A DNA stretch of 50,971 nt from Deltaproteobacteria bacterium (GTDB taxonomy: Bacteria > Myxococcota > Myxococcia > Myxococcales > SZAS-1), in the NCBI GenBank assembly GCA_018266075.1, contig JAFEBB010000054.1, positions 1-50,971 on the forward strand. The letters run 5' to 3'. The notes beneath the pieces are model-generated. The model did not search any database and was not told where the DNA came from. It was given only the letters and a program-made list of their open reading frames with translations. Numbering within the stretch: position 1 is the first letter of the stretch; each line of letters begins with the position of its first letter. Shown piece after piece: positions 23,402 through 44,965 of the stretch. The translations under genes and the position numbers were made by a program.

Positions 23402-23535
23402 CGTGCGGCCTGTTCTGCACCCGTCCGAGTGGTTCGGCGGGGGGGAAGTCAAAAACGAACGGGTTATCCCGCGCGCCCCGCCCGAGCGAGGCGCCAGCGG
23501 TCGGCTCGCGTCGGCCGCGCAGCAAGGAGCAGTGC

Positions 23536-25807: not shown

Positions 25808-28800
25808 ATGCGCCTTCACCACGTCGTTTCGCTGCTCTGCGCGGTCCTCGCGCTCGGCGCCGGTTGTACCTGCGGCAAGCCGCCCACGCCGAGCGGTCCC
25901 GTTGACGCAGGCGGCGCCGCGCCCGCCCACCCGCCGGTGACGCTCGCGCCGCTGCCCGAGGCGCCCAAGATCCAGGTCGAGCCCGAGGCCGTGCCCGGCG
26001 CCAACGGCGAGCTGGCGGTGGTGAACGCGCGGCCGACCGGCGACTTCGAGGGCGCGCTGCACCCCACGATCACCTTCTCCAAGCCCATCGTGGCCCTGGG
26101 CAGCGTGGACGACGAGAAGAAGATCGCCGCGCCCGCCAACATCGAGCCGCACCTCGAGGGCACCTGGCGCTGGCTGGGATCGGCGTCGGTGGAGTTCGAG
26201 CCCGCGGGCCAGGTGCCCTACGCGACCGAGTTCAAGGTCACCGTGCCCTCGGGCATCACCGCGCTCGACGGCACCGTGCTCAAGGAGCCGTACACGTACA
26301 CCTTCAACACTCCGCGGCCCGACGTGCAGGACGTGACGCCCTTCGCCGGCGACGCGTGGATCACCCCGGATCAGCAGTTCACGATTCTGCTTAACCAACC
26401 GGTTAACGATCTGCTCGCGCACCTCAAGGTCACCGCGGACGGCACGCCCGCGAAGATGGTGATCACCAAGACCGTGGACATCGCCGAGGAGCGTCGGGCC
26501 GAGGAGAAGGGCCGCCGCTATCCGCGCCAGCCGCTCGGTGAAGAGAGCTTCCGCAATCGCCAGACGCGCTACGAGCTCAAGCCCGCTGCGCCACTGCCCA
26601 CGAACGCCAACGTGGAGCTCAGCCTCGACACTGGGCTGCGCGGCGCCGATGGTCCGCTCACGCTTCCGCAGCCGTACTCGGTGAAGTTCAAGACCTACGG
26701 ACCCATGAAGTTCCTCGCGGCCACGGCCTGCTACGGCACCACCGGCTGCTCGTACGGCCCGGTGATCCTCAAGGTCACCAACCAGGCCGACACAGAGTCG
26801 CTCAAGGCGCACCTCCGCGTGGAGCCCAAGGTGGACATCGACTGGGACCACGTGGACAGCACCTTCAACCGCTGGCGGGAGGGCGGGCAGTACGTGGGCC
26901 TGCCTGGAAATTGGAAGCCCGGACAGACCTACACGCTGGCCATCGCCGCTGGGGCGCTCGACGTCTTCAAGCAGCCCGCGCTCGCGTTCAAGGCGCAGGT
27001 GCGCATGAACGACGTCGACCCGGAGCTCTCCACGGGCGCGGAGCAGGCGCTGCTCGAGGCCAAGGGCGACGGCGCGCTGCCGCTCTACAGCGTGAACATC
27101 GACCACGCCGACACGCGCGTGTGGGCCCTGGGCGCGCCGCTCGCCGCACAGCTCCTCGCCAGCGATGGCTTCTGGAACTTCGACGCCACCGTGGCCAAGG
27201 CCTTCGGCGGCGACCTCGAGGCAGCGCACCACGTGGACCAGAAGCTCGACCTCGCCCACACCAAGAACCAGGCGCTGTGGACGCCGCTCAAGATCCGCGA
27301 GTGGCTCGGCGAAGGTCAGAGCAACCTGTTCCTGGTGCGCGTGGACTCCGACGAGCTTCCGCCGAACCACCGCGCTCACTACGTGATGGGCCAGATCACC
27401 GACCTCGCGGTGCACGCCAAGCTGGGCGCGGCGCAGAGCCTGGTGTGGGTGACCTCGCTGTCGACCGGCAAGCCCGTGGGCGGCGCGACCGTGACCGTGC
27501 TCGATCGCGGGGGCAGGAGCGTGTGGACCGGCCAGTCCGACGCCGATGGCCTCTGCGACGTGCCCGGCCTGGAGCAGATCATTCCGCATGGCAAGGCGCG
27601 CCGCTTCTACGACGAGGCGCCGTTCGCCGTGGTCACCGCGCAGAAGGACGGCGACCTCGGCCTCACCGCCAGCGGCTGGGAGGGCAGCGCCAACCCGTAC
27701 AGCTTCGGGGTCACGCCGGCCTGGGAGACCTCCACGCCGGTGACGCTCGCGCAGGCGTTCACCGACCGCGGCATCTACCGTCCCGGCGAGGCCGTGGAGC
27801 TCAAGGGCTTCTTCCGCGACCGTGTGCCCGGCGCGATCAGGAACGTGGGTATTAACCTTCCTGTTCACATCGTCATCACCAACCCCAAGGGCCAGAAGGT
27901 CTCCGAGCAGGACGTGAAGACCACGGCCTTCGGCGGCTTCTCGGGCCACGCGGAGCTCGGCAAGGACGCGCCGCTTGGCACGTATGAAGTGGTGGCGACG
28001 TCAGCGCGCAAGGACGCGCCGCTGTCGGTGACGACGAGCTTCCGCGTGGAGGAGTACCGCGCGCCGCAGTTCCAGGTGGACGTGAGCTCGCCGAAGCCGG
28101 AGGTCATCGCCGGCGAGCCGCTCGGCGCCACGGTGCTCTCGCGCTACCTCTTCGGCGGCGCCATGGCCGGCGCCCACGTGCGCTGGACCGCCGTGCGCGC
28201 GACGACGGAGTTCGAGCCGCCCAACAACCCGGGCTTCGTGTTCGGGCCGCACGCCTGGTGGTGGAACGACGATCAGCCGCAGCCCTCGAGCGATGTGGCC
28301 GGCGGCGGCGAAGCCGACTCCGACGCGCAGGGAAATCTCGCGATCGACCTCGGCAAGGCGGAGGCGCCGGGCAACAAGACCTACGTGTACACCGTCGAGG
28401 CCGAGACGACCGACGTGAACCGCCAGCGCCTCGCGAATCGCACGACGATCACCGTGCATCCGGCGGCCGTCTATCCCGGCCTGAGCTCGGGCGAGGGCTT
28501 CGGCGAGGTGAACAAGCCCCTGAAGATCGAAGTTGTCGCGGTGGATCCCGCGGGCGCGCGCACCAGCGGACAAAAGATCTCGGTGGAGGTGAAGCGCCGC
28601 GAGTGGAAGTCCATCAAGAAGAAGGGCGTAGGCGGAGAGTGGTTCACGGAGAGTGAACCCGTGGAGACCGACGCCGCCAAGTGCGACGTGAGCACGCAGA
28701 CCACGCCCGTGGACTGCACCTTCACCCCGCAGCAGCCCGGACTCTACCTGCTCGAGGCCACCGCGACCGATTCCGCCGGACGCAGCGCGACGACGCGGAG

Positions 28801-31786
28801 CTCGGTGTACGCCATCGGCTCGGGCTGGGTGAGCTGGCAGCGCGGCGACACCGATCGCATCGACCTCGTGGCCGACAAGGCCAAGTACGACGTCGGCGAC
28901 GTGGCCCACGTGCTGGTGAAGAGCCCGTATCCCGAGGCCGACGCGATCTTGACGACCGAGCGTGAGGGCGTGCTCACCCGCAAGCGCGTGCACCTCAGCG
29001 GCGCAGCCACCGCGCTCGATGTGCCCATCGACGAGAAGATGGTGCCCAACGTGTTCGTGGGCCTGGTGCTCGTCCGCGGCCGCGTGCCCACGGCGGATGG
29101 CGTGGAGACCGGCTCCGATCCCGGCCGGCCTGCTTCACGTTTTGGTTACATCGAACTGCCAGTGGAGAAGAAGACCAAGCGGCTCGCGGTGGAGATCACC
29201 CCTGACAAACCCGAGACCAAGCCGCGCGACACCGTTAACGTTTCCGTTAAGGTCACGGACTCGAAGGGCAAGCCGGTACACGGCGAGGTTGCGCTCTGGG
29301 CCGTCGACGAAGGCGTGCTCCGCCTGACCAACTACCAGGCGCCGGATCCCGTGGAGGCGCTGCACAAGCCGCGCGGACTCTCGGTGCGCATCGCCGAGCC
29401 GTTGATCCACCTGGTCGAGAAGCAGCTCTATGGTGAGAAGGGCGAAGCAGGTGGCGGCGGCGGCGACGATGCCACCGGCTCGGGTTTCCGCTCGCAGTTC
29501 AAGACCACGGTGCTCTTCGCGCCCGCGCTGGAGACCGATGCGAATGGCGTCGCGCACACCAGCTTCCAGCTCCCTGACAACCTCACCACCTATCGCCTGA
29601 TGGCCGTGGCGATCGATGACGGCGATCGCGGCGGGTTCGGCAACAGCAAGGTCGTGGTCTCCAAGAAGCTCATGGCGCTGCCAGCACTGCCGCGGCTCGC
29701 GCGCGCGGGCGATGAGTTCGAGGCGGGCGTGGTCGTTCACGCGCACGGCAGCGACGTCGCCGAAGCGACCGTGACCGCCCAGGCCGAGGGCGTGACGCTG
29801 CAGGAGCCGACGTCGCGGACCGTCGCGCTCGGCGATGGCAAGGGACATGAAGTGCGCTTCAAGTTCAAGGCCGAGAAGCCTGGAACCGCGACGCTGCGCT
29901 TCAAGGTCACGGGCGGCGGCGACAGCGATGGCGTGGAGCAGAAGATTCCCATTCAGCTTCCGACCGAGCTCGAGGCCGTCGCGACGTACGGCGATACGAA
30001 GGATCAGCGCGTGGAAGGCCTCGTGCCGCCGGGTGGCGTGCGCACCGACGTGGGCGGGCTCGACGTCACGCTGAGCTCGACGATCCTCGGCGGCTTCAAC
30101 GAGGGCATGCGCCAACTCGTGGAGTATCCGTACGGCTGCGTGGAGCAGATGTCGTCGCGGCTGATCCCCTTCGTCGCGCTGCGCGAGATCTACGGAAAAT
30201 TTGGCGGCACCTGGCCCGTCACCGACGTGGATCGCAAGGCGCAGAAGGATCACGAACAGTGGCTCGCGCTCTGGCTCGGCGACGATTCGCTGGAGATGTT
30301 CGGTCTCTCGGATCCCGACGAGGTGGTGAAGCTCACGCTCGGCAAGATTGCGCGCATGCAGAACCACGACGGCGGCTTCCGCTACTGGGAGGGTGAGGGC
30401 TGCTCGAGCGACTATGCGAGCTCGTATGCCGTGCTCGCCCTCGCGCGCGCGAAGGACGTGGGCTATCCCGTCGACGCGTCGTCGATTTCGGCGGGACAGA
30501 AGTTCCTGCAGCGGGTGGCGCGGGGCGAGCCGAACCGCTGCTACCCGTTCCCCGCGCCGCCGGATCCGGCCGAGCGCGCGTTCGCGCTGTACACGCTCGC
30601 GCGCACCGGCAATCCGCAGCCGAGCTCGTACGCGGATCTCTACGCGAACCGGAAGGACCTGCCGCTCTTCGCGCAGGCCATGCTCGCCGACGCGATGTTC
30701 ATCGGTAAGGGCGATCGCACGCAGGCCAAGCAGCTCCTGAGCGAGCTCATGAACCGCGCGCAAGAGACGCCGCGCGAGGTGCACTTCGAGGAGATCAACG
30801 CGCGCAGCTACGCGGCCATGTGGTCGAGCGACACGCGCACCACGGCGATCATCCTCCAGACGCTCACCGACCTCGCGCCGGATCACCCGTACGTCGCCAA
30901 GATCGGGAACTATCTCACCAAGGTTCGCCAGGGCACCGGCCAGTTCCGCAACACGCAAGAGGCCGCGTTCTCGCTCATGGCGCTCACCGAGGTGGTGCGC
31001 ACCAAGGAGAAGGACGTGCCCGACTACACCGCGCACGTGAAGCTCGGCGCCAAGGAGTTGCTCACCGCGAGCTTCAAGGGTCGCACCACGACGGTGCAGA
31101 CGCAGAAGGTGCCCATCACCGCGCTCGGTGCTGCGGAGGCGAAGCAGACCTTCACGTTCAGCAAGGACGGCCCGGGCGTCCTCTACTACGGCGCGCTCTT
31201 GCGCTACGCGCCCGCGCAGATGCCGCTCACGCCCATGGATCGCGGCATGGTGGTGCAGCGCTGGTACGAGCCCTACGCCGGGGGCGGCCAGTCGAAGAGC
31301 TTCTTCGCGGGCGATCTGGTGCGCGTGCGCGTGCGCGTGGCCACACCGCAGGAGCGTAACTACGTGGCCGTCGACGTGCCGCTGCCGGCGGGCCTGGAGA
31401 TCGTGGACACCTCGCTCGCGTCGACCGCGAAGCTGCCCGACGACTCGAAGGATGAAGGTCGGAACGCCGGCTACCAGTACGACTCCGACGAGAACCAGGA
31501 CAGCGACGACCCCGAGGTCGACGACACCTCGCCTGCGCGGCTCTGGGAAGGCCAGTTCTGGAGCCCGTTCAACTTCACGGAGAAGCACGACGACAGGCTC
31601 ACGCTCTTCGCGGATCATTTGCCGCCGGGCGTGCACGTCTCGAGCTTCGTCGCGCGCGCCACGACGCCGGGCACCTTCCTCGACAAGCCCGCACACGCCG
31701 AGGAGATGTACACGCCCGAGGTGTTCGGACGCTCCGAGGGCGGCACGTTCCAGGTGATCGACGCGTCGACGGTGGCGCAGAAATAG
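25808..31786 (+). CDS. bacterial alpha-2-macroglobulin lipoprotein
   Basis: 1992 residues, longer than E. coli YfhM (about 1650). Signal with lipobox LGAGC and acylated Cys20. A series of macroglobulin beta domains follows. The thioester domain has YPYGCVEQMSSR with Cys1444, so the reactive CxEQ thioester is kept (many bacterial forms have CLEQ). A C-terminal receptor-binding-like domain ends at about 1990. The protein traps proteases in the periplasm, protecting the envelope. The stop is directly followed by the pbpC start, the same pairing as yfhM-pbpC in E. coli. At least four copies of a TTAACS-N4-SGTTAA-type palindrome lie inside the gene (26391, 27852, 29134, 29235). Confidence 0.92.
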   Translation: MRLHHVVSLLCAVLALGAGCTCGKPPTPSGPVDAGGAAPAHPPVTLAPLPEAPKIQVEPEAVPGANGELAVVNARPTGDFEGALHPTITFSKPIVALGSVDDEKKIAAPANIEPHLEGTWRWLGSASVEFEPAGQVPYATEFKVTVPSGITALDGTVLKEPYTYTFNTPRPDVQDVTPFAGDAWITPDQQFTILLNQPVNDLLAHLKVTADGTPAKMVITKTVDIAEERRAEEKGRRYPRQPLGEESFRNRQTRYELKPAAPLPTNANVELSLDTGLRGADGPLTLPQPYSVKFKTYGPMKFLAATACYGTTGCSYGPVILKVTNQADTESLKAHLRVEPKVDIDWDHVDSTFNRWREGGQYVGLPGNWKPGQTYTLAIAAGALDVFKQPALAFKAQVRMNDVDPELSTGAEQALLEAKGDGALPLYSVNIDHADTRVWALGAPLAAQLLASDGFWNFDATVAKAFGGDLEAAHHVDQKLDLAHTKNQALWTPLKIREWLGEGQSNLFLVRVDSDELPPNHRAHYVMGQITDLAVHAKLGAAQSLVWVTSLSTGKPVGGATVTVLDRGGRSVWTGQSDADGLCDVPGLEQIIPHGKARRFYDEAPFAVVTAQKDGDLGLTASGWEGSANPYSFGVTPAWETSTPVTLAQAFTDRGIYRPGEAVELKGFFRDRVPGAIRNVGINLPVHIVITNPKGQKVSEQDVKTTAFGGFSGHAELGKDAPLGTYEVVATSARKDAPLSVTTSFRVEEYRAPQFQVDVSSPKPEVIAGEPLGATVLSRYLFGGAMAGAHVRWTAVRATTEFEPPNNPGFVFGPHAWWWNDDQPQPSSDVAGGGEADSDAQGNLAIDLGKAEAPGNKTYVYTVEAETTDVNRQRLANRTTITVHPAAVYPGLSSGEGFGEVNKPLKIEVVAVDPAGARTSGQKISVEVKRREWKSIKKKGVGGEWFTESEPVETDAAKCDVSTQTTPVDCTFTPQQPGLYLLEATATDSAGRSATTRSSVYAIGSGWVSWQRGDTDRIDLVADKAKYDVGDVAHVLVKSPYPEADAILTTEREGVLTRKRVHLSGAATALDVPIDEKMVPNVFVGLVLVRGRVPTADGVETGSDPGRPASRFGYIELPVEKKTKRLAVEITPDKPETKPRDTVNVSVKVTDSKGKPVHGEVALWAVDEGVLRLTNYQAPDPVEALHKPRGLSVRIAEPLIHLVEKQLYGEKGEAGGGGGDDATGSGFRSQFKTTVLFAPALETDANGVAHTSFQLPDNLTTYRLMAVAIDDGDRGGFGNSKVVVSKKLMALPALPRLARAGDEFEAGVVVHAHGSDVAEATVTAQAEGVTLQEPTSRTVALGDGKGHEVRFKFKAEKPGTATLRFKVTGGGDSDGVEQKIPIQLPTELEAVATYGDTKDQRVEGLVPPGGVRTDVGGLDVTLSSTILGGFNEGMRQLVEYPYGCVEQMSSRLIPFVALREIYGKFGGTWPVTDVDRKAQKDHEQWLALWLGDDSLEMFGLSDPDEVVKLTLGKIARMQNHDGGFRYWEGEGCSSDYASSYAVLALARAKDVGYPVDASSISAGQKFLQRVARGEPNRCYPFPAPPDPAERAFALYTLARTGNPQPSSYADLYANRKDLPLFAQAMLADAMFIGKGDRTQAKQLLSELMNRAQETPREVHFEEINARSYAAMWSSDTRTTAIILQTLTDLAPDHPYVAKIGNYLTKVRQGTGQFRNTQEAAFSLMALTEVVRTKEKDVPDYTAHVKLGAKELLTASFKGRTTTVQTQKVPITALGAAEAKQTFTFSKDGPGVLYYGALLRYAPAQMPLTPMDRGMVVQRWYEPYAGGGQSKSFFAGDLVRVRVRVATPQERNYVAVDVPLPAGLEIVDTSLASTAKLPDDSKDEGRNAGYQYDSDENQDSDDPEVDDTSPARLWEGQFWSPFNFTEKHDDRLTLFADHLPPGVHVSSFVARATTPGTFLDKPAHAEEMYTPEVFGRSEGGTFQVIDASTVAQK

Positions 31787-34105
31787 ATGCGCGCGCGGAT
31801 CGAAAGAGCGGCCCTCGCGCTGGGCTTCGCGCCGGTCCTCGCGGCCGTGGCGTTCGTGGCCTGGCCGCTGCCGTCGAAGCTGCTCGATCGCGAGCGGCTG
31901 GTGTCGCTCCAGATCGCCGATCGCGAAGGCGGGACGCTGCGCGAGCTGCGCTCGCTCGACGATGGCCGCTCGGTCGCGCTCCCCGACGAGACCGTGCCGC
32001 CGCGGCTCGCGCAGGCCTTCATCGCCGCCGAGGATCATCGCTTCGGGCACCACCCCGGCGTGGACGTCCTCGGCATCGCGCGCGCGGCGGAGCAGGACCT
32101 TCGCGCAGGCCGCATCGTGAGCGGCGCGTCGACGATTCCCCAGCAGCTCGCGCGCATGCTCGTGCCGCGGCCGCGCACGCTCGCGGGCAAGGTGATGGAG
32201 GCGCTCTGGGCCATTCGGCTCACGCTGCACCTGCCGCGTGAGCGCGTGCTGCTCGAGTACGCGAACCGCGTGGCGCTGGGGGAGTCGACGTTCGGCGCCG
32301 AAGCAGCGTCGCAGCTCTACTTCGGCCGCAGCGCGCGCACCCTCTCGGCAGGCCAGGCGGCGCTGCTCGCGGGCCTGGCGTGCAACCCCGAGTCGCACGA
32401 TCCCTATCGGCATCCCGAAGCGGCGAAGTCGCGCATGAAGCGGGTGCTCCAGCAGATGGCCGCGCTGGGCTTCTTGAATGCCGAGCAGCTCCGCGTGGCC
32501 GTGGATGCACCCGTGGACCTCGTGCCGCCCGAGCGCGCCTTCCGCTCGCCGCACTTTGTTAACGGTTTGGTTTCGTCGCTCCCGCGGCTTGGGCTGCACG
32601 AGGCGCGGCGCATCGACACCACGCTCGATCCCGCGCTCCAGGCCGATGTGGAGGATGCCGTGCACGCCACCGTGGCCGAGCTCGGTGGACACCAGGTGAG
32701 CGAGGCGGCGGCGATCGTGGTCGACAATGCCACTGGCGAGGTGCTGGCCTACGTCGGCTCGGCGGACTACCTCGACTGGGATCACGGCGGCGCCAACGAC
32801 GGCGTGCGCGCGCTGCGGCAGCCGGGCAGCGCGCTCAAGCCCTTCGCGTACGGGCTCGCGCTCGCCAATGGCCACACCCCCGCCGAGGTCCTCGGCGACG
32901 TGGAGACGCACCTGGCCACGCCGACCGGCGACTACGTGCCGCGCAACTACGACCGGCGCGTGCACGGCCCGGTGCGCCTGCGCGCGGCATTACAAAACAG
33001 TTACAACGTGCCGGCGGTGCGCATCGCCGAGACGCTCGGCACCGATCGTGTGCTCCGGACGCTGCAGCGGGCGGGCTTCGAGTCGCTGGACCACGATCCC
33101 TCGTACTATGGCGTGGGGCTCGTGCTCGGCGACGGCGACGTGAGCCTCTGGGAGCTCGCGCGCGCCTATCGCGGGCTGGCCAATGGTGGCGTGGTGGGTC
33201 CGCTCGTGCCCGTGCGCCGCGCCGTGGACGCGTTCGGGCAACCGCTGCCCATCACGCCCGAGCTGACACCGCATCGCTTCTTGCCGGCGGATGCAACCAA
33301 TCTGTTAACAGACATCCTCTCCGACGAGGCCGCGCGCGCGCCGGCCTTCGGCCTGGACAACGCGCTCCGGCTGCCGTTCCCCGTGGCCGCCAAGACCGGC
33401 ACCAGCCGAGCCTACGTGGACAACTGGACCGCGGGCTTCACGCGCGAGCGCACCGTGGCCGTGTGGGTGGGCAACTTCGACGGCCGGCCGATGCGCGGCG
33501 TCTCCGGGATCACCGGCGCGGGTCCGCTCTTCAAGCGCGTGATGGTGCGCGCCATGCGCGGCGTCGACCCCAAGCCGCTGGTGAACCGCGAGCGACTCAC
33601 GGAAGCGGAGATCTGCCCGCTCTCGGGAAAGCTCGCCGGCCCCGCGTGCCCTGGCCACTTCAAGGAGCGCTTCCTGCCCGGCACCGCGCCCAAAGAGACG
33701 TGCGGCATGCATCGGCTCTCCGGCGACGGCCAGGCCCAGCTCGACGTGGGCCCCGAGTTCTACGCCTGGGCCGAGGGAGAAGGTTTGAGCACAAACCCAT
33801 CCGTCGGCGGCGCGTCGGGCGTGACGCTGCTCTCGCCGGTCGACGGCGACGAGTACCTCGCCGAGCCCGGGCTGCCCCAGGGCGCGCAGTCCATCCCCGT
33901 GCGCGCGCTGGTGGACGGCGCGGGCGCGCTGGTGCTCCGCGTGGACGGCGTCGAGCGGCCGTTTGCTCGCCCGTTCGTCACCCGGGTGGAGGCGAAGCCC
34001 GGGCCGCACACGCTGGAGCTCGTCCGCGACGGCGCGACCATCGCCACCGCCCACTACCGGGTGCGCGGCGGAGACCGGCTCGCGCTCGGGCCCCCGCAAC
34101 GCTAG
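31787..34105 (+). CDS. pbpC: penicillin-binding protein 1C (bifunctional)
   Basis: 772 residues starting at the base after the alpha-2-macroglobulin stop. An N-terminal membrane anchor (about 12-28) is followed by the glycosyltransferase domain with Glu82 in AAEDHRFGHH and the GASTIPQQLARML motif. The transpeptidase domain has Ser348 and Lys351 in PGSALKPF, SYN at about 405 and KTGTS at about 538. The last 90 residues are the beta-rich BiPBP_C domain typical of PBP1C. It polymerises and crosslinks peptidoglycan and probably works with the macroglobulin as a repair pair. Three copies of the palindromic motif lie inside it (32559, 32989, 33293). Confidence 0.95.
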   Translation: MRARIERAALALGFAPVLAAVAFVAWPLPSKLLDRERLVSLQIADREGGTLRELRSLDDGRSVALPDETVPPRLAQAFIAAEDHRFGHHPGVDVLGIARAAEQDLRAGRIVSGASTIPQQLARMLVPRPRTLAGKVMEALWAIRLTLHLPRERVLLEYANRVALGESTFGAEAASQLYFGRSARTLSAGQAALLAGLACNPESHDPYRHPEAAKSRMKRVLQQMAALGFLNAEQLRVAVDAPVDLVPPERAFRSPHFVNGLVSSLPRLGLHEARRIDTTLDPALQADVEDAVHATVAELGGHQVSEAAAIVVDNATGEVLAYVGSADYLDWDHGGANDGVRALRQPGSALKPFAYGLALANGHTPAEVLGDVETHLATPTGDYVPRNYDRRVHGPVRLRAALQNSYNVPAVRIAETLGTDRVLRTLQRAGFESLDHDPSYYGVGLVLGDGDVSLWELARAYRGLANGGVVGPLVPVRRAVDAFGQPLPITPELTPHRFLPADATNLLTDILSDEAARAPAFGLDNALRLPFPVAAKTGTSRAYVDNWTAGFTRERTVAVWVGNFDGRPMRGVSGITGAGPLFKRVMVRAMRGVDPKPLVNRERLTEAEICPLSGKLAGPACPGHFKERFLPGTAPKETCGMHRLSGDGQAQLDVGPEFYAWAEGEGLSTNPSVGGASGVTLLSPVDGDEYLAEPGLPQGAQSIPVRALVDGAGALVLRVDGVERPFARPFVTRVEAKPGPHTLELVRDGATIATAHYRVRGGDRLALGPPQR

Positions 34106-34135
34106 ATTGCGCTGCTTTCTCTCGACGGAGTTCGC

Positions 34136-35014
34136 ATGCTCGTGCTCAAGGGTTCCATGGTGGCGATGGCCACGCCGTTCAAGAACGGCGCGCTCGACGA
34201 GGCCGCGTTCGCCACGCACGCCAGGTTCCTCGTCGACAACGGCACCAGCGTGCTCGTGCCCATGGGCACCACCGGCGAGTCGGTGACCTGCAGCGACGCC
34301 GAGCAGGCGCGCGCGGTGCGCATCGCCGTGGAGAACAAGGGCCGGGCGATCGTCCTCGGCGGCGCGGGCAGCAACGACACCGCGCACGCCATCCACCTGG
34401 TGAAGGGGGTGCGCGACGCCGGCGCCGACGGCACGCTCGTGGTCACGCCGTACTACAACCGGCCCACGCAGGACGGCCTCGTCGCGCACTACAAGGCCAT
34501 CGCCAAGGCGCACCCGGGCTTCCCCATCGTCGCCTACAACGTGCCCAGCCGCACCGGCGTCGACCTCCTGCCCGAGACCTGCGCGCGGCTCTGCGAGATC
34601 CCCGAGGTCGTCGGCTTGAAGGAAGCGACGGGCAACATGGCCCGCACGGTGGACATCTTCGAGAAGTGCGGCGATCGCCTGCAGCTCATCTCCGGCGACG
34701 ACTTCACCATCGCGCCCTTCATCGCCTGCGGCGGCCTGGGGGTGATCAGCGTCTCCGCGAACATCGCGCCCCGCCAGGTGGCCGACCTCTGCGACGCCGC
34801 CCTGGCCGGCAAGCGCGAGGCCGCTCGCGATCTCCAGACGCGCCTCAACCCGCTGCACCGCGCGCTCTTCTCCGAGGCCAGCCCCACGCCGGTGAAGGCG
34901 GGGCTTTCGCTGATGGGCCGCTTCACCGACGAGATCCGCCTGCCGCTCCTGCCCATGACCGAGGGCCCGAAGGCCAAGCTGCGTGAGGCCATGAAGCAGC
35001 TGGGGATCCTCTAG
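34136..35014 (+). CDS. dapA: 4-hydroxy-tetrahydrodipicolinate synthase
   Basis: 292 residues, normal length. The Schiff-base lysine is Lys162 in GLKEATG. Thr45/Thr46 (GTTGES) and Tyr134 (AYNVPSRTG) complete the catalytic triad, and Arg139 binds pyruvate-derived carboxylate. It makes the first committed intermediate of lysine and diaminopimelate, so it also feeds peptidoglycan. GGAG precedes the ATG at 34136. It follows pbpC by 30 bases and may share its transcript. Confidence 0.95.
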   Translation: MLVLKGSMVAMATPFKNGALDEAAFATHARFLVDNGTSVLVPMGTTGESVTCSDAEQARAVRIAVENKGRAIVLGGAGSNDTAHAIHLVKGVRDAGADGTLVVTPYYNRPTQDGLVAHYKAIAKAHPGFPIVAYNVPSRTGVDLLPETCARLCEIPEVVGLKEATGNMARTVDIFEKCGDRLQLISGDDFTIAPFIACGGLGVISVSANIAPRQVADLCDAALAGKREAARDLQTRLNPLHRALFSEASPTPVKAGLSLMGRFTDEIRLPLLPMTEGPKAKLREAMKQLGIL

Positions 35015-35027
35015 GCGCTGCGCGAGC

Positions 35028-35043
35028 TGAACCGAACGGTTAA
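35028..35043. promoter_or_regulatory. intergenic copy of the 16-bp palindromic motif
   Basis: TGAACCGAACGGTTAA lies between dapA and grxC, ending 10 bases before the grxC ATG. It is one of only two intergenic copies of the motif in the window; the coding copies are listed in the findings. Confidence 0.5.
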
Positions 35044-36227: not shown

Positions 36228-36908
36228 ATGTTCGATCCTCCCGTCCGCGATTGCCGCAGCTGTCCGCTCGGCCAGGCTTCCTCGGGCACCCGCTGCCCGG
36301 GCACGCCCGCCAGCTACCCCGCAGGCGCGCAGCCCTTGCGCGAGGGCGAGCCACCCGCGCAAGTCACGTTCCTCCGCGAGGGGCTCATGGCCCAGGGAGA
36401 CGTCGACGCGGCCTCGGGCCCGCTCGCCGTTCGCGGCCCGCGGGCGCTGCTGGGGCTCGAGGCCTTGCGCGGCAAGCCTGCGACCCAGGGCGCGGTGGCG
36501 CTCACGCCGGTGAAGGTCTGCCACCTGCCGGCGTCGGGGCTCAAGGCGTGGCTGGCGGCGCCGGGCTCCTCGCGCGCCCTGGTGGAGCTCTTGATCGACG
36601 AGCTCCAGCGCCTGGGCGACGAGGGCGCGTGGCGCCGCGGGCCGTGCCTCGGTCGGCTGGCGCGCTTCTGCCTGGCCCAGCGCGACGCTGGCGCAGACGG
36701 CGCCGTTCCGCTCCCGAAAGCGACCGTCGCGCGCGTGCTCGACATGCGCGCGGAGACGCTCTCCCGCTGCCTCTCGGCCCTCGCGGAACGCGGCCTCATC
36801 GACCGCACCTCGCCCCACGCCATCCGCGACGTCGCCGGGCTCGCGAGCCTGGCGCGCGGCGGTCAGGGACAGATGAGCGTGTCGAGCGAGGGATCGGTGA
36901 GCTGCTGA
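36228..36908 (+). CDS. FNR/CRP-family regulator with four FNR-type cysteines
   Basis: 226 residues from the ATG at 36228; an ATG at 36204 is possible. The N-terminus has Cys9, Cys12 and Cys23 (C-x2-C-x10-C), and Cys98 follows in VKVCHLP, the position of Cys122 in E. coli FNR. That suggests a [4Fe-4S] oxygen sensor, although FNR has C-x2-C-x5-C. The C-terminal helix-turn-helix has AETLSR, which keeps the E-x2-SR residues that read FNR sites (TTGAT-N4-ATCAA). I see no such site in the window. The 3' end overlaps a convergent lipoprotein gene by 46 bases. Confidence 0.75.
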   Translation: MFDPPVRDCRSCPLGQASSGTRCPGTPASYPAGAQPLREGEPPAQVTFLREGLMAQGDVDAASGPLAVRGPRALLGLEALRGKPATQGAVALTPVKVCHLPASGLKAWLAAPGSSRALVELLIDELQRLGDEGAWRRGPCLGRLARFCLAQRDAGADGAVPLPKATVARVLDMRAETLSRCLSALAERGLIDRTSPHAIRDVAGLASLARGGQGQMSVSSEGSVSC

Positions 36909-43555: not shown

Positions 43556-44965
43556 ATGTCCGAGGCCCGACAGACTCCGATCGTCCGCGCGCTGCGCTCG
43601 CTGCCCGTGCGAATCGGGCTCGCGGTGGTTGCGCTCGCGGGGATGGGTTCGTTGCTCGCGAAGGTCGAGCTCGGCCGGGATCTGCGCGGGCTCGACGTCG
43701 CCGTGCTCTCCGGAGCGCCCGAGGGCAACTATCATCAGGTGGTGGACCGCTTTGCTGACTCGGCCAAGAAGCGCCGGGGCACGGTGAAGAACCTCGCCAG
43801 CGAAGGCTCGGTCGACAATCTGAACCGTTTGGTTAATAGCCGCTCGAGCTGCGAGGCGTCGTTCGCGCTGATCCAGGACGGCCAGGCGTGGCCGAGCGAC
43901 GTCCCGCTGCAGCTCCTGGGACGGTTGCCGCACGCGGAGACGGTGCTCTTCCTGGGCAAGAACGGCGACGCCATCTCGGAGGTCGCTCAGCTCAAGGGGA
44001 TGAAGATCGGCATCGGGCCCGCGGGCTCGGGTACGGCAAAGGTCGCGAAGCAGATCCTCGAGTCGCGCGATCTGGATCAGCTCGGGCTCACGCTCGAGAA
44101 CCACACGCTGGCCGAGCAGCTGGAGCTCGCGGCACAGGGAAAGCTCGACCTCGCGGTGCTGGTGATGGACGAGGACGCAGCGCTGGTCGAGAAATCGGTT
44201 CGCGAGAAAGGGCTTCAGGTGGCCAGCTTCGCGCACGCGGACGCGCTCTTGAGCCGCGTGCCGCACCTGCACGTGGGCCGGCTGGGCGCCGGTCACTACG
44301 ACCCGGTGAAGCTCTTGCCCGCAGCGGATCGCACGGTGCTGCAGGTGGACACGCTGCTGGTGTCGAACGGCTGCGCGGGCCGGTCGAAGACGCTCGACTT
44401 CCTCGGCGTGGTGGCGAGCGTCTTCCCCGAGTTCGTCCGCGACAACCTCGCGAACCCCAACACCACCGGCCTCGAGTGGGCGCCCGCTGCGCGCAGCTAC
44501 CTCGACAACGGCGGCCCCGAGGCCTTCGACCAGTACGCGCCCTGGCTCGCCGACGTCATGCCCGCGGGGAAGTGGGTGTACCTGGTGACGGGCGTGTCGG
44601 TGCTCTTCAACCTGATGGGCATGGGCCACCGCTTCCAGCTCTGGCGCATCGACGCCAACCGCGTGCGCATGGAGCAGGAGCTCACCGCGCTCTTCGGGCC
44701 GACCACGACGCTCGGCGACATCCGCGAGCTGCAGCCCACCGAGAAGGACCGCTCGCCGGAGATCCTCTCGGCCTGCGAGCAGGTGATCCACGAGCTGGAG
44801 GCGCTGGCGGCGCGCTCGCGGCGGATGTCGCTCTCGCCCATCGTGCCCATGGGGCAGGAGATGGCCTACCGGTATCAAGAGAGCCTGATGCACGACACGA
44901 TGGCCGTGCTGCGCGGCTTTCTGCGACGCGCGTCGGGCTCGGCGAGCGCCAAGCCGGCTGCCTGA
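43556..44965 (+). CDS. membrane-anchored TAXI/NMT1-type solute-binding protein
   Basis: 469 residues. A TM anchor at about 18-35 is followed by a periplasmic solute-binding domain (about 45-335). Motifs of the TAXI group of TRAP receptors include VLSGAPEGNYHQVVDRFA, LASEGSVDNLNRLV and CEASFALIQDG. A second TM (about 341-361) leads to a 105-residue cytoplasmic helical tail. Usual TAXI receptors are secreted and work with a TRAP permease; none is visible here. The layout, with a periplasmic sensor and an internal tail, suggests a receptor and not a transporter, but no known output domain is present. One palindromic motif copy lies at 43821. Confidence 0.75.
   Translation: MSEARQTPIVRALRSLPVRIGLAVVALAGMGSLLAKVELGRDLRGLDVAVLSGAPEGNYHQVVDRFADSAKKRRGTVKNLASEGSVDNLNRLVNSRSSCEASFALIQDGQAWPSDVPLQLLGRLPHAETVLFLGKNGDAISEVAQLKGMKIGIGPAGSGTAKVAKQILESRDLDQLGLTLENHTLAEQLELAAQGKLDLAVLVMDEDAALVEKSVREKGLQVASFAHADALLSRVPHLHVGRLGAGHYDPVKLLPAADRTVLQVDTLLVSNGCAGRSKTLDFLGVVASVFPEFVRDNLANPNTTGLEWAPAARSYLDNGGPEAFDQYAPWLADVMPAGKWVYLVTGVSVLFNLMGMGHRFQLWRIDANRVRMEQELTALFGPTTTLGDIRELQPTEKDRSPEILSACEQVIHELEALAARSRRMSLSPIVPMGQEMAYRYQESLMHDTMAVLRGFLRRASGSASAKPAA

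What the first reader, a model, noticed from the sequence alone, without database searches (positions are those of the whole stretch)
26391..35043. Clustered 16-bp palindrome TTAACS-N4-SGTTAA, mostly inside coding sequence
Copies: TTAACCAACCGGTTAA (26391), TTAACCTTCCTGTTCA (27852), TTCACGTTTTGGTTAC (29134), TTAACGTTTCCGTTAA (29235), TTAACGGTTTGGTTTC (32559), ATTACAAAACAGTTAC (32989), GCAACCAATCTGTTAA (33293), TGAACCGAACGGTTAA (35028). Two more lie outside this block: TGAACCGTTTGGTTAA (43821) and a weaker AAAACGAACGGGTTAT (23452). The centre is often GTTT or its complement AAAC. Coding copies start at codon position 1 (33293), 2 (26391, 27852, 29235, 32559, 43821) and 3 (29134, 32989), and they force rare codons such as TTA, GTT, CTT and CGT. 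So the constraint is on DNA and not protein. I found no copy in 1-23 kb or after 44 kb. By rough hand estimate (about 15% each A and T), even one full TTAAC-N6-GTTAA is expected far less than once in 51 kb, and there are two exact and two one-mismatch copies. It is not parS, matS, a LexA box or CtrA by known consensus. Possible roles are a chromosome-organising site, a regulator with many targets, or an uptake or recombination signal.
Basis: partly seen in the sequence, partly recalled or inferred. Interest (0 to 1): 0.78.

Follow-up and report, generated by a model that had tools for sequence, protein, structure and literature searches.

The report
Genome-wide sixteen-base protein binding site
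One myxobacterial lineage carries several hundred copies of a 16-base palindrome, kept inside genes and at their stop codons by selection on the DNA itself; it looks like the docking site of an unstudied chromosome-wide protein, probably of the ArsR family, and relatives have at most one or two copies each.

Summary
The pattern TTAACS-N4-SGTTAA occurs 57 times in this 7.84 Mb myxobacterial genome; the other 194 genomes searched in its phylum have 0-2 copies each. A weight matrix (consensus tTAACCRWWYGGTTAa) estimates about 660-770 strong sites. On 400 kb of held-out DNA it found 29 sites against 0.2 expected. About 60% of sites lie in genes, where they exceed synonymous-codon shuffles about 15-fold, so the constraint is on DNA. 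Per base, sites are depleted in genes, about 9-fold enriched between convergent genes, not enriched at divergent promoters, and overlap 25% of TAA stop codons. Spacing is fixed and the central positions do not pair, indicating a protein dimer on DNA, not an RNA hairpin. In related genomes, single copies usually sit at ArsR-SRPBCC promoters as ordinary operators. In this genome only three exact tandem pairs exist; one is the promoter of a lineage-specific 95-aa ArsR-like gene on contig C4. Best reading: an ArsR-type protein whose operator spread chromosome-wide, acting as an architectural (nucleoid-associated) protein. The site is well established; the reader protein and the function are inferred.

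The parts
23452..23467 (.). weak site AAAACGAACGGGTTAT, 13.7 bits, between divergent genes
   Evidence: weight matrix scan
26391..26406 (.). site TTAACCAACCGGTTAA (exact), 24.0 bits, inside the alpha-2-macroglobulin-like gene, starts at codon position 2
27852..27867 (.). site TTAACCTTCCTGTTCA, 17.8 bits, coding
29134..29149 (.). site TTCACGTTTTGGTTAC, 19.1 bits, coding
29235..29250 (.). site TTAACGTTTCCGTTAA (exact), 21.0 bits, coding
32559..32574 (.). site TTAACGGTTTGGTTTC, 20.7 bits, inside the penicillin-binding-protein gene
32989..33004 (.). site ATTACAAAACAGTTAC, 15.7 bits, coding
33293..33308 (.). site GCAACCAATCTGTTAA, 19.7 bits, coding
35028..35043 (.). site TGAACCGAACGGTTAA, 19.8 bits, between the dihydrodipicolinate-synthase-family gene and the glutaredoxin gene (same direction)
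43821..43836 (.). site TGAACCGTTTGGTTAA, 22.0 bits, coding
25808..31786 (+). gene for a bacterial alpha-2-macroglobulin (1992 aa) that holds four sites
   Evidence: Pfam MG2, A2M_BRD, A2M, bMG10 and others
31787..34105 (+). gene for a class A penicillin-binding protein (772 aa, the usual partner of bacterial alpha-2-macroglobulin) that holds three sites
   Evidence: Pfam Transgly and Transpeptidase

Best explanation
The palindrome is the DNA-binding site of a homodimeric winged-helix protein that occupies several hundred places on this chromosome (estimate about 660-770 strong sites in 7.84 Mb). Each half-site (T/G)TAAC(C) sits one DNA turn from the other across a soft A/T-rich centre. The protein most likely belongs to the ArsR family (HTH_5/HTH_20). 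In the rest of the order this sequence is an ordinary, once-per-genome operator of ArsR-SRPBCC operons; in this lineage the operator has multiplied across the chromosome. The best candidate reader is the 95-aa, strongly basic ArsR-like protein at G000:C4:199598-199882 (minus strand), whose own promoter carries a tandem pair of sites. Most sites are in gene bodies and at convergent gene ends, and divergent promoters are not enriched. The most likely job is therefore architectural, as a sequence-specific nucleoid-associated protein, with repression at a few promoters that carry tandem sites, its own included. Shown: the site, its number, its spacing, the DNA-level constraint, its location bias and its restriction to this lineage among the genomes held. 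Inferred: the ArsR family as reader, the particular gene, and the architectural role.
For: Number and specificity: 57 exact copies against 0 for the reversed pattern. In the 195 genomes of the phylum search no other genome has more than 2. Gap scan: TTAAC-N6-GTTAA 14 times, 0 at every other gap from 0 to 25; TTAA-N8-TTAA 16 times, 0 at N7. Weight matrix on held-out 400 kb: 29 sites at >=15 bits against 0.2 in Markov controls and a mean of 1.5 (maximum 7) for column-permuted palindromic matrices. DNA-level constraint: 104 coding hits against 4-11 in within-gene synonymous shuffles; held out, 20 against a mean of 1.3. Location: convergent junctions hold 35 of 205 sites on 2.0% of the sequence (p 8e-22), divergent regions 9 of 205 on 3.4% (p 0.26); 40 of 158 TAA stop codons overlap a site against 2 of 1451 TAG or TGA stops. 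Even spread over contigs; flanking GC no different from random. Dimer on DNA: the inner positions show no base-pair covariation (columns 6/11: 73 observed, 70 expected; 7/10: 60 and 66.5; 8/9: 26 and 61). ArsR link: of 35 inspected loci with a copy in other genomes, I count 22 next to an ArsR, ArsR-SRPBCC or VOC-ArsR-SRPBCC operon, most of them just upstream of it, several as tandem operators 16-19 bp apart, and 2 at TetR promoters. In G000, only three exact tandem pairs exist in the genome, and one lies directly upstream of the ATG and ribosome-binding site of the 95-aa ArsR-like gene. That protein's recognition-helix stretch TWPAISRHLRIL matches SLPAISKHLKVL of ArsR proteins with known adjacent TTAACC-N4-GGTTAA sites. 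It has no close counterpart (best 33-42% identity) in 142 genomes of the class.
Against: No binding data exist. The two sites in the candidate's promoter are only of middling strength (18.5 and 16.1 bits). The candidate lacks the C-terminal helix that other ArsR proteins of the group have, so its dimerisation is uncertain. Tandem sites also occur in at least two other promoters (C6:99320, C11:85389), so a tandem pair is not unique to a reader gene. Other regulator families (MarR, GntR, LacI, LysR, Xre, ribbon-helix-helix) were not screened. The architectural role rests on location only. The 9-fold enrichment at convergent ends may partly reflect that TAA stop codons supply three bases of the site for free.
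Confidence: 0.45

Rival explanations
1. The sites belong to a global transcription regulator (of ArsR or another family) in the ordinary sense. Intragenic and 3'-end sites block or terminate transcription or are simply tolerated, and the regulon is read from the minority of promoter sites.
For: Promoter-proximal strong sites exist, some in tandem (C6:99320 upstream of an outer-membrane-type protein, C11:85389). Many known regulators bind inside genes (for example PhoB, PMC10294691).
Against: Divergent promoter regions are not enriched (9 of 205, p 0.26) and the distance to gene starts shows no peak. Intragenic sites of ordinary regulators are generally thought to arise by chance, but here they exceed the synonymous-shuffle expectation about 15-fold.
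Confidence: 0.25
2. The same architectural role, but read by a different protein: a TetR-family protein (compare SlmA), a Crp-family protein, or a ribbon-helix-helix protein comparable to CdbA of Myxococcus xanthus.
For: Two TetR genes in relatives carry the palindrome in their promoters (L026, L150). The 5-6-5 geometry equals that of Crp-family sites. CdbA binds 569 places in the 9.28 Mb M. xanthus genome, mostly within genes, with little effect on transcription (PMC7156744).
Against: None of 24 TetR and 6 Crp-type loci in G000 has a strong site in its own promoter, including the Crp-like gene in the window. There is a single ParB, so no Noc-like paralogue. The CdbA motif is a direct repeat with a 4-bp spacer (PMC7156744), whereas this one is an inverted repeat with a fixed 6-bp spacer.
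Confidence: 0.2
3. A highly iterated palindrome of the HIP1 kind, maintained for DNA methylation, mismatch repair or recombination and not for a stably bound protein.
For: High copy number in genes and intergenic DNA with DNA-level constraint; HIP1 of cyanobacteria is associated with DNA methyltransferases (PMC4390886).
Against: Every half-site position tolerates substitutions in a graded way, which fits a binding protein better than a methyltransferase. The copy number is far lower than HIP1's, as I recall it.
Confidence: 0.06
4. Bidirectional RNA terminators or stop-codon cassettes between convergent genes.
For: About 9-fold enrichment at convergent junctions, often supplying both stop codons.
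Against: About 60% of sites are inside genes; no covariation of the inner stem positions; no run of T follows; spacing is fixed at N6 with no loop-length variation.
Confidence: 0.03

Closest known systems
CdbA of Myxococcus xanthus (nucleoid-associated protein, PMC7156744)
   Same: Same bacterial order as far as can be judged; several hundred sites over the chromosome (569 peaks in 9.28 Mb); 35% intergenic with the rest in genes; little effect on transcription; moderate sequence specificity.
   Different: Ribbon-helix-helix protein; motif is a direct repeat with a 4-bp spacer. Here an inverted repeat TTAAC-N6-GTTAA, absent from M. xanthus-like relatives beyond 0-2 copies.
Operators of ArsR (HTH_20)-SRPBCC operons in other Myxococcia
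   Same: Same sequence (for example TTAACCATTTGGTTAA, TTAACCCGTTGGTTAA), often in tandem at 16-19 bp, next to ArsR genes with a similar recognition helix.
   Different: Mostly one copy per genome at one promoter, against several hundred dispersed copies, mostly not at promoters.
SlmA/SBS, Noc/NBS, MatP/matS, ParB/parS
   Same: Chromosomal palindromes dispersed in genes and intergenic DNA that organise or protect the chromosome.
   Different: Different sequences, far fewer copies and, for matS and parS, regional restriction. Here the spread is even.
HIP1 of cyanobacteria (PMC4390886)
   Same: Lineage-specific over-represented palindrome in coding and non-coding DNA.
   Different: HIP1 is a contiguous 8-mer (GCGATCGC) associated with methyltransferases; this is a 16-bp degenerate bipartite site.

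Membership tests
ArsR-family operator | Palindrome matches the operator next to ArsR genes in related genomes | tested here: met
   By my count 22 of 35 inspected loci with a copy in other genomes adjoin ArsR/SRPBCC operons
   For one gene only: the 95-aa HTH_5/HTH_20 protein at C4 with tandem sites upstream of its ATG
ArsR-family operator | Few targets, at promoters | tested here: not met
   About 660-770 sites, about 60% in genes, no promoter bias
ArsR-family operator | Direct binding by the ArsR protein | not testable with these tools
   Needs ChIP-seq, EMSA or DAP-seq
CdbA-type nucleoid-associated site | Direct repeat with 4-bp spacer | tested here: not met
   Site is an inverted repeat with N6; gap scan against PMC7156744
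CdbA-type nucleoid-associated site | Hundreds of sites, genic and intergenic, no promoter bias | tested here: met
CtrA site | TTAA-N7-TTAA | tested here: not met
   TTAA-N7-TTAA 0 copies, TTAA-N8-TTAA 16 copies in 731 kb
parS / Noc site | ParB-family reader with an extra paralogue, contiguous palindrome with a fixed centre | tested here: not met
   One ParB only; centre is degenerate RWWY
matS | GTGACRNYGTCAC, confined to the terminus region | tested here: not met
   Different sequence (consensus recalled); even spread over contigs
DNA uptake sequence | Non-palindromic single unit over-represented on its own | tested here: not met
   TTAACC 43 observed, 40.2 expected; GTTAAC 56 observed, 59 expected
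Intrinsic bidirectional terminator | RNA stem with compensatory pairs and variable loop | tested here: not met
   No covariation of the inner positions; fixed spacing
Crp-family site | Reader of the Crp family, usually autoregulated | tested here: inconclusive
   5-6-5 geometry fits, but none of the 6 HTH_Crp_2 loci has a strong site upstream
LexA box | Sites at SOS gene promoters | not tested
   Number and location of sites make it unlikely

The most novel reading that the evidence does not exclude
A small ArsR-family winged-helix protein, freed of its usual SRPBCC partner gene, has become a chromosome-wide architectural protein in one myxobacterial lineage. Its operator has been seeded into hundreds of genes and gene ends by selection, so that about a quarter of all TAA stop codons exist as part of its sites.
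Probability: 0.3. Interest if true: 0.8.

Novelty: new variant of a known kind. Interest (0 to 1): 0.62.

Why it matters
Binding sites inside genes are usually dismissed as chance. Here a high-GC genome shows, against synonymous-codon shuffles, that several hundred intragenic and stop-codon sites are held by selection on DNA. The site appears to have expanded from a single-copy ArsR operator in one lineage. If confirmed, it would show how an ordinary repressor can be turned into a nucleoid protein, give a clean case for measuring what chromosome-wide sequence-specific binding is for, and add a second sequence-specific chromosome binder beside CdbA in myxobacteria.

Tried and rejected
RNA hairpin or terminator: rejected, because the inner positions do not covary and the gap is fixed. 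CtrA: rejected on spacing. Noc-like ParB paralogue: only one ParB. TetR reader: two relatives have the site at a TetR promoter, but none of 24 TetR loci in this genome does. Crp reader: the window holds a Crp-like gene beside the densest group of sites, but no site lies in its promoter. DNA uptake signal: half-sites alone are not enriched. AT-rich or foreign islands: flanking GC of sites equals random, 0.695. Insertion of a 16-bp mobile element: unlikely, since 16 bp would shift the frame in the roughly 60% of copies inside genes. Another global palindrome in sister families: de novo scan of about 80-100 kb each from four relatives found only tandem repeats, but the power was limited. Close relatives for a synonymous-site comparison: two scans of named genomes gave none or only about 40% SMC matches. 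Literature searches found no description of this motif.

Full report
What was checked. With up to three mismatches there are 23 matches against 6.3 expected, and no shuffle of 100 reaches that number. The window is the whole of contig C54 of a 166-contig, 7.84 Mb draft genome at 96.6% completeness and 0.73% contamination. Its genes and its relatives point to the phylum Myxococcota; the order reads as Myxococcales from genome sizes and gene content (inference). Two SMC relatives found in named genomes are labelled Polyangiaceae and Myxococcales and are only about 40% identical.

The motif is genome-wide and specific. The exact pattern TTAACSN4SGTTAA occurs 57 times in the genome and never in the reversed control. 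Among 30 palindromic controls of the same half-site composition, no other reaches more than 2 copies at 0-1 mismatch in 451 kb, against 12 for the motif. The gap is rigid: TTAAC-N6-GTTAA occurs 14 times in 731 kb and TTAAC-Ng-GTTAA never at any other g from 0 to 25. In the same DNA, 32 of the 83 TTAA tetramers belong to such pairs. A symmetric weight matrix trained on 1.5 Mb gives the consensus tTAACCRWWYGGTTAa. Applied to 400 kb not used for training it finds 29 sites at 15 bits or more, against 0.2 in order-1 Markov sequence and a mean of 1.5 (maximum 7) with column-permuted palindromic matrices. On 1.62 Mb of contigs not picked for having sites there are 137 sites, which extrapolates to about 660 in the genome; all fetched DNA together gives 765. 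Contig-to-contig variation is what Poisson predicts (chi2 13.2, 11 df).

The motif is peculiar to this lineage among the genomes held. In the 195 genomes of its phylum that were searched, no other has more than two exact copies. No second genome of its family is held, so its age and its conservation between close relatives remain open.

The constraint is on DNA. Within predicted genes, 104 sites at 15 bits or more stand against 4-11 in shuffles that permute synonymous codons within each gene. On held-out DNA the figures are 20 against a mean of 1.3. Sites are uniform along gene length. They prefer the frame that avoids in-frame TAA, which follows from the sequence itself.

Where the sites are. 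About 60% lie in genes, which make up 88% of the DNA. Convergent gene junctions (2.0% of the DNA) hold 35 of 205 sites, p = 8e-22; divergent regions hold 9 of 205, p = 0.26. TAA is the rare stop codon here (158 of 1609), and 40 of those 158 TAA stops overlap a site, against 2 of 1451 other stops. The free TAA of a stop codon is a natural place for such a site to evolve, so the stop-codon preference may be a matter of cost and not of function. Gene prediction was a simple GC-by-codon-position method, so the exact fractions are approximate.

DNA, not RNA. Pairs of positions in the inner part of the palindrome do not covary as base pairs: columns 6/11 73 observed and 70 expected, 7/10 60 and 66.5, and the central pair 26 and 61. 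The outermost pair does show an excess (93 observed, 72 expected), which I do not explain. Fixed spacing and independent inner half-sites fit a protein dimer on one face of the double helix.

Which protein reads it. In other genomes of the order the sequence occurs mostly once. I inspected 35 loci that carry a copy of the palindrome or its core in other genomes. By my count 22 adjoin an ArsR-type regulator gene with its SRPBCC (or VOC and SRPBCC) partners, most just upstream of it and several as tandem operators 16-19 bp apart; 2 lie at TetR promoters and 11 at neither. This identifies the sequence as an ArsR-type operator in the order (inference from position, not binding data). In G000 the ordinary ArsR-SRPBCC operons keep only degenerate versions (L119, L121). 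Only three exact tandem pairs exist in the whole genome. One is at a convergent junction and one is in a coding sequence; the third lies 19-51 bp upstream of the ATG of a 95-aa HTH_5/HTH_20 protein on contig C4. That protein is strongly basic, lacks the C-terminal helix of its relatives, has no adjacent SRPBCC gene, shares the recognition-helix pattern PAIS(R/K)HL with the ArsR proteins next to TTAACC operators, and has no close counterpart in 142 genomes of the class. None of the 24 TetR or 6 Crp-type loci has a strong site in its promoter, and there is one ParB. Other families were not screened, so this remains a candidate.

What it does. Several hundred sites that are even along the chromosome, mostly in genes and at gene ends and not enriched at divergent promoters, resemble the distribution reported for the nucleoid-associated protein CdbA of M. 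xanthus (569 peaks, 35% intergenic, little transcriptional effect; PMC7156744). CdbA's motif is a direct repeat with a 4-bp spacer, so this is not a CdbA site by sequence. I therefore favour an architectural role with limited promoter regulation, and rank a conventional global regulator second. Nothing here measures binding or function.

The window itself. The densest group of sites found in 1.7 Mb is in the alpha-2-macroglobulin and penicillin-binding-protein gene pair at 25808-34105 (8 sites in 9 kb including 35028; 2.7% of uniform simulations reach this). It may be a chance extreme or a locally important site group; I do not build on it.

Noticed in passing
G000:C1:70890-71045, C5:49610-49698, C11:10993-11060 (coordinates approximate at the ends): 21-bp tandem minisatellites of the unit GTTACTGGCGGGTCAACCCCC and its reverse complement, with the orientation switching inside at least one array.
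   Followed up: no
L025, L029, L030, L087-L092, L094, L151-L154, L157, L159, L161-L166: A recurrent regulon in Myxococcia: ArsR-SRPBCC or VOC-ArsR-SRPBCC operons with TTAACC-N4-GGTTAA operators, often in tandem 16-19 bp apart.
   Followed up: partly
L026:6122 and L150:2027: Two TetR-family genes in different families of the order carry the same palindrome just upstream of their start.
   Followed up: partly
window 36250-36905 (+): A Crp/FNR-like gene with an N-terminal cysteine motif (RDCRSCPLGQ), with a paralogue on C2:174291; no palindrome in its promoter.
   Followed up: partly
L123:2290-2610: A stretch whose minus-strand reading repeats the unit VIYGSKFNP about every 20 residues; possibly a DNA repeat and not a protein.
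   Followed up: no
L130:6169-6351 (G001) and L135:8180-12535 (G006): Relatives carry their own repeats: a 42-bp tandem repeat with TTACGCG-N-CGCGTAA cores, and dispersed copies of GGGAACGTAACGGGAACGTAATCG.
   Followed up: no
window 26391-35043: Densest site group in 1.7 Mb falls on the alpha-2-macroglobulin and penicillin-binding-protein pair, a known envelope-defence gene pair.
   Followed up: partly
G000:C6:99320 and C11:85389: Tandem palindromes 16 bp apart in the promoters of an outer-membrane-type protein gene and of a slipin-like (SPFH-like) gene, judged by eye.
   Followed up: no
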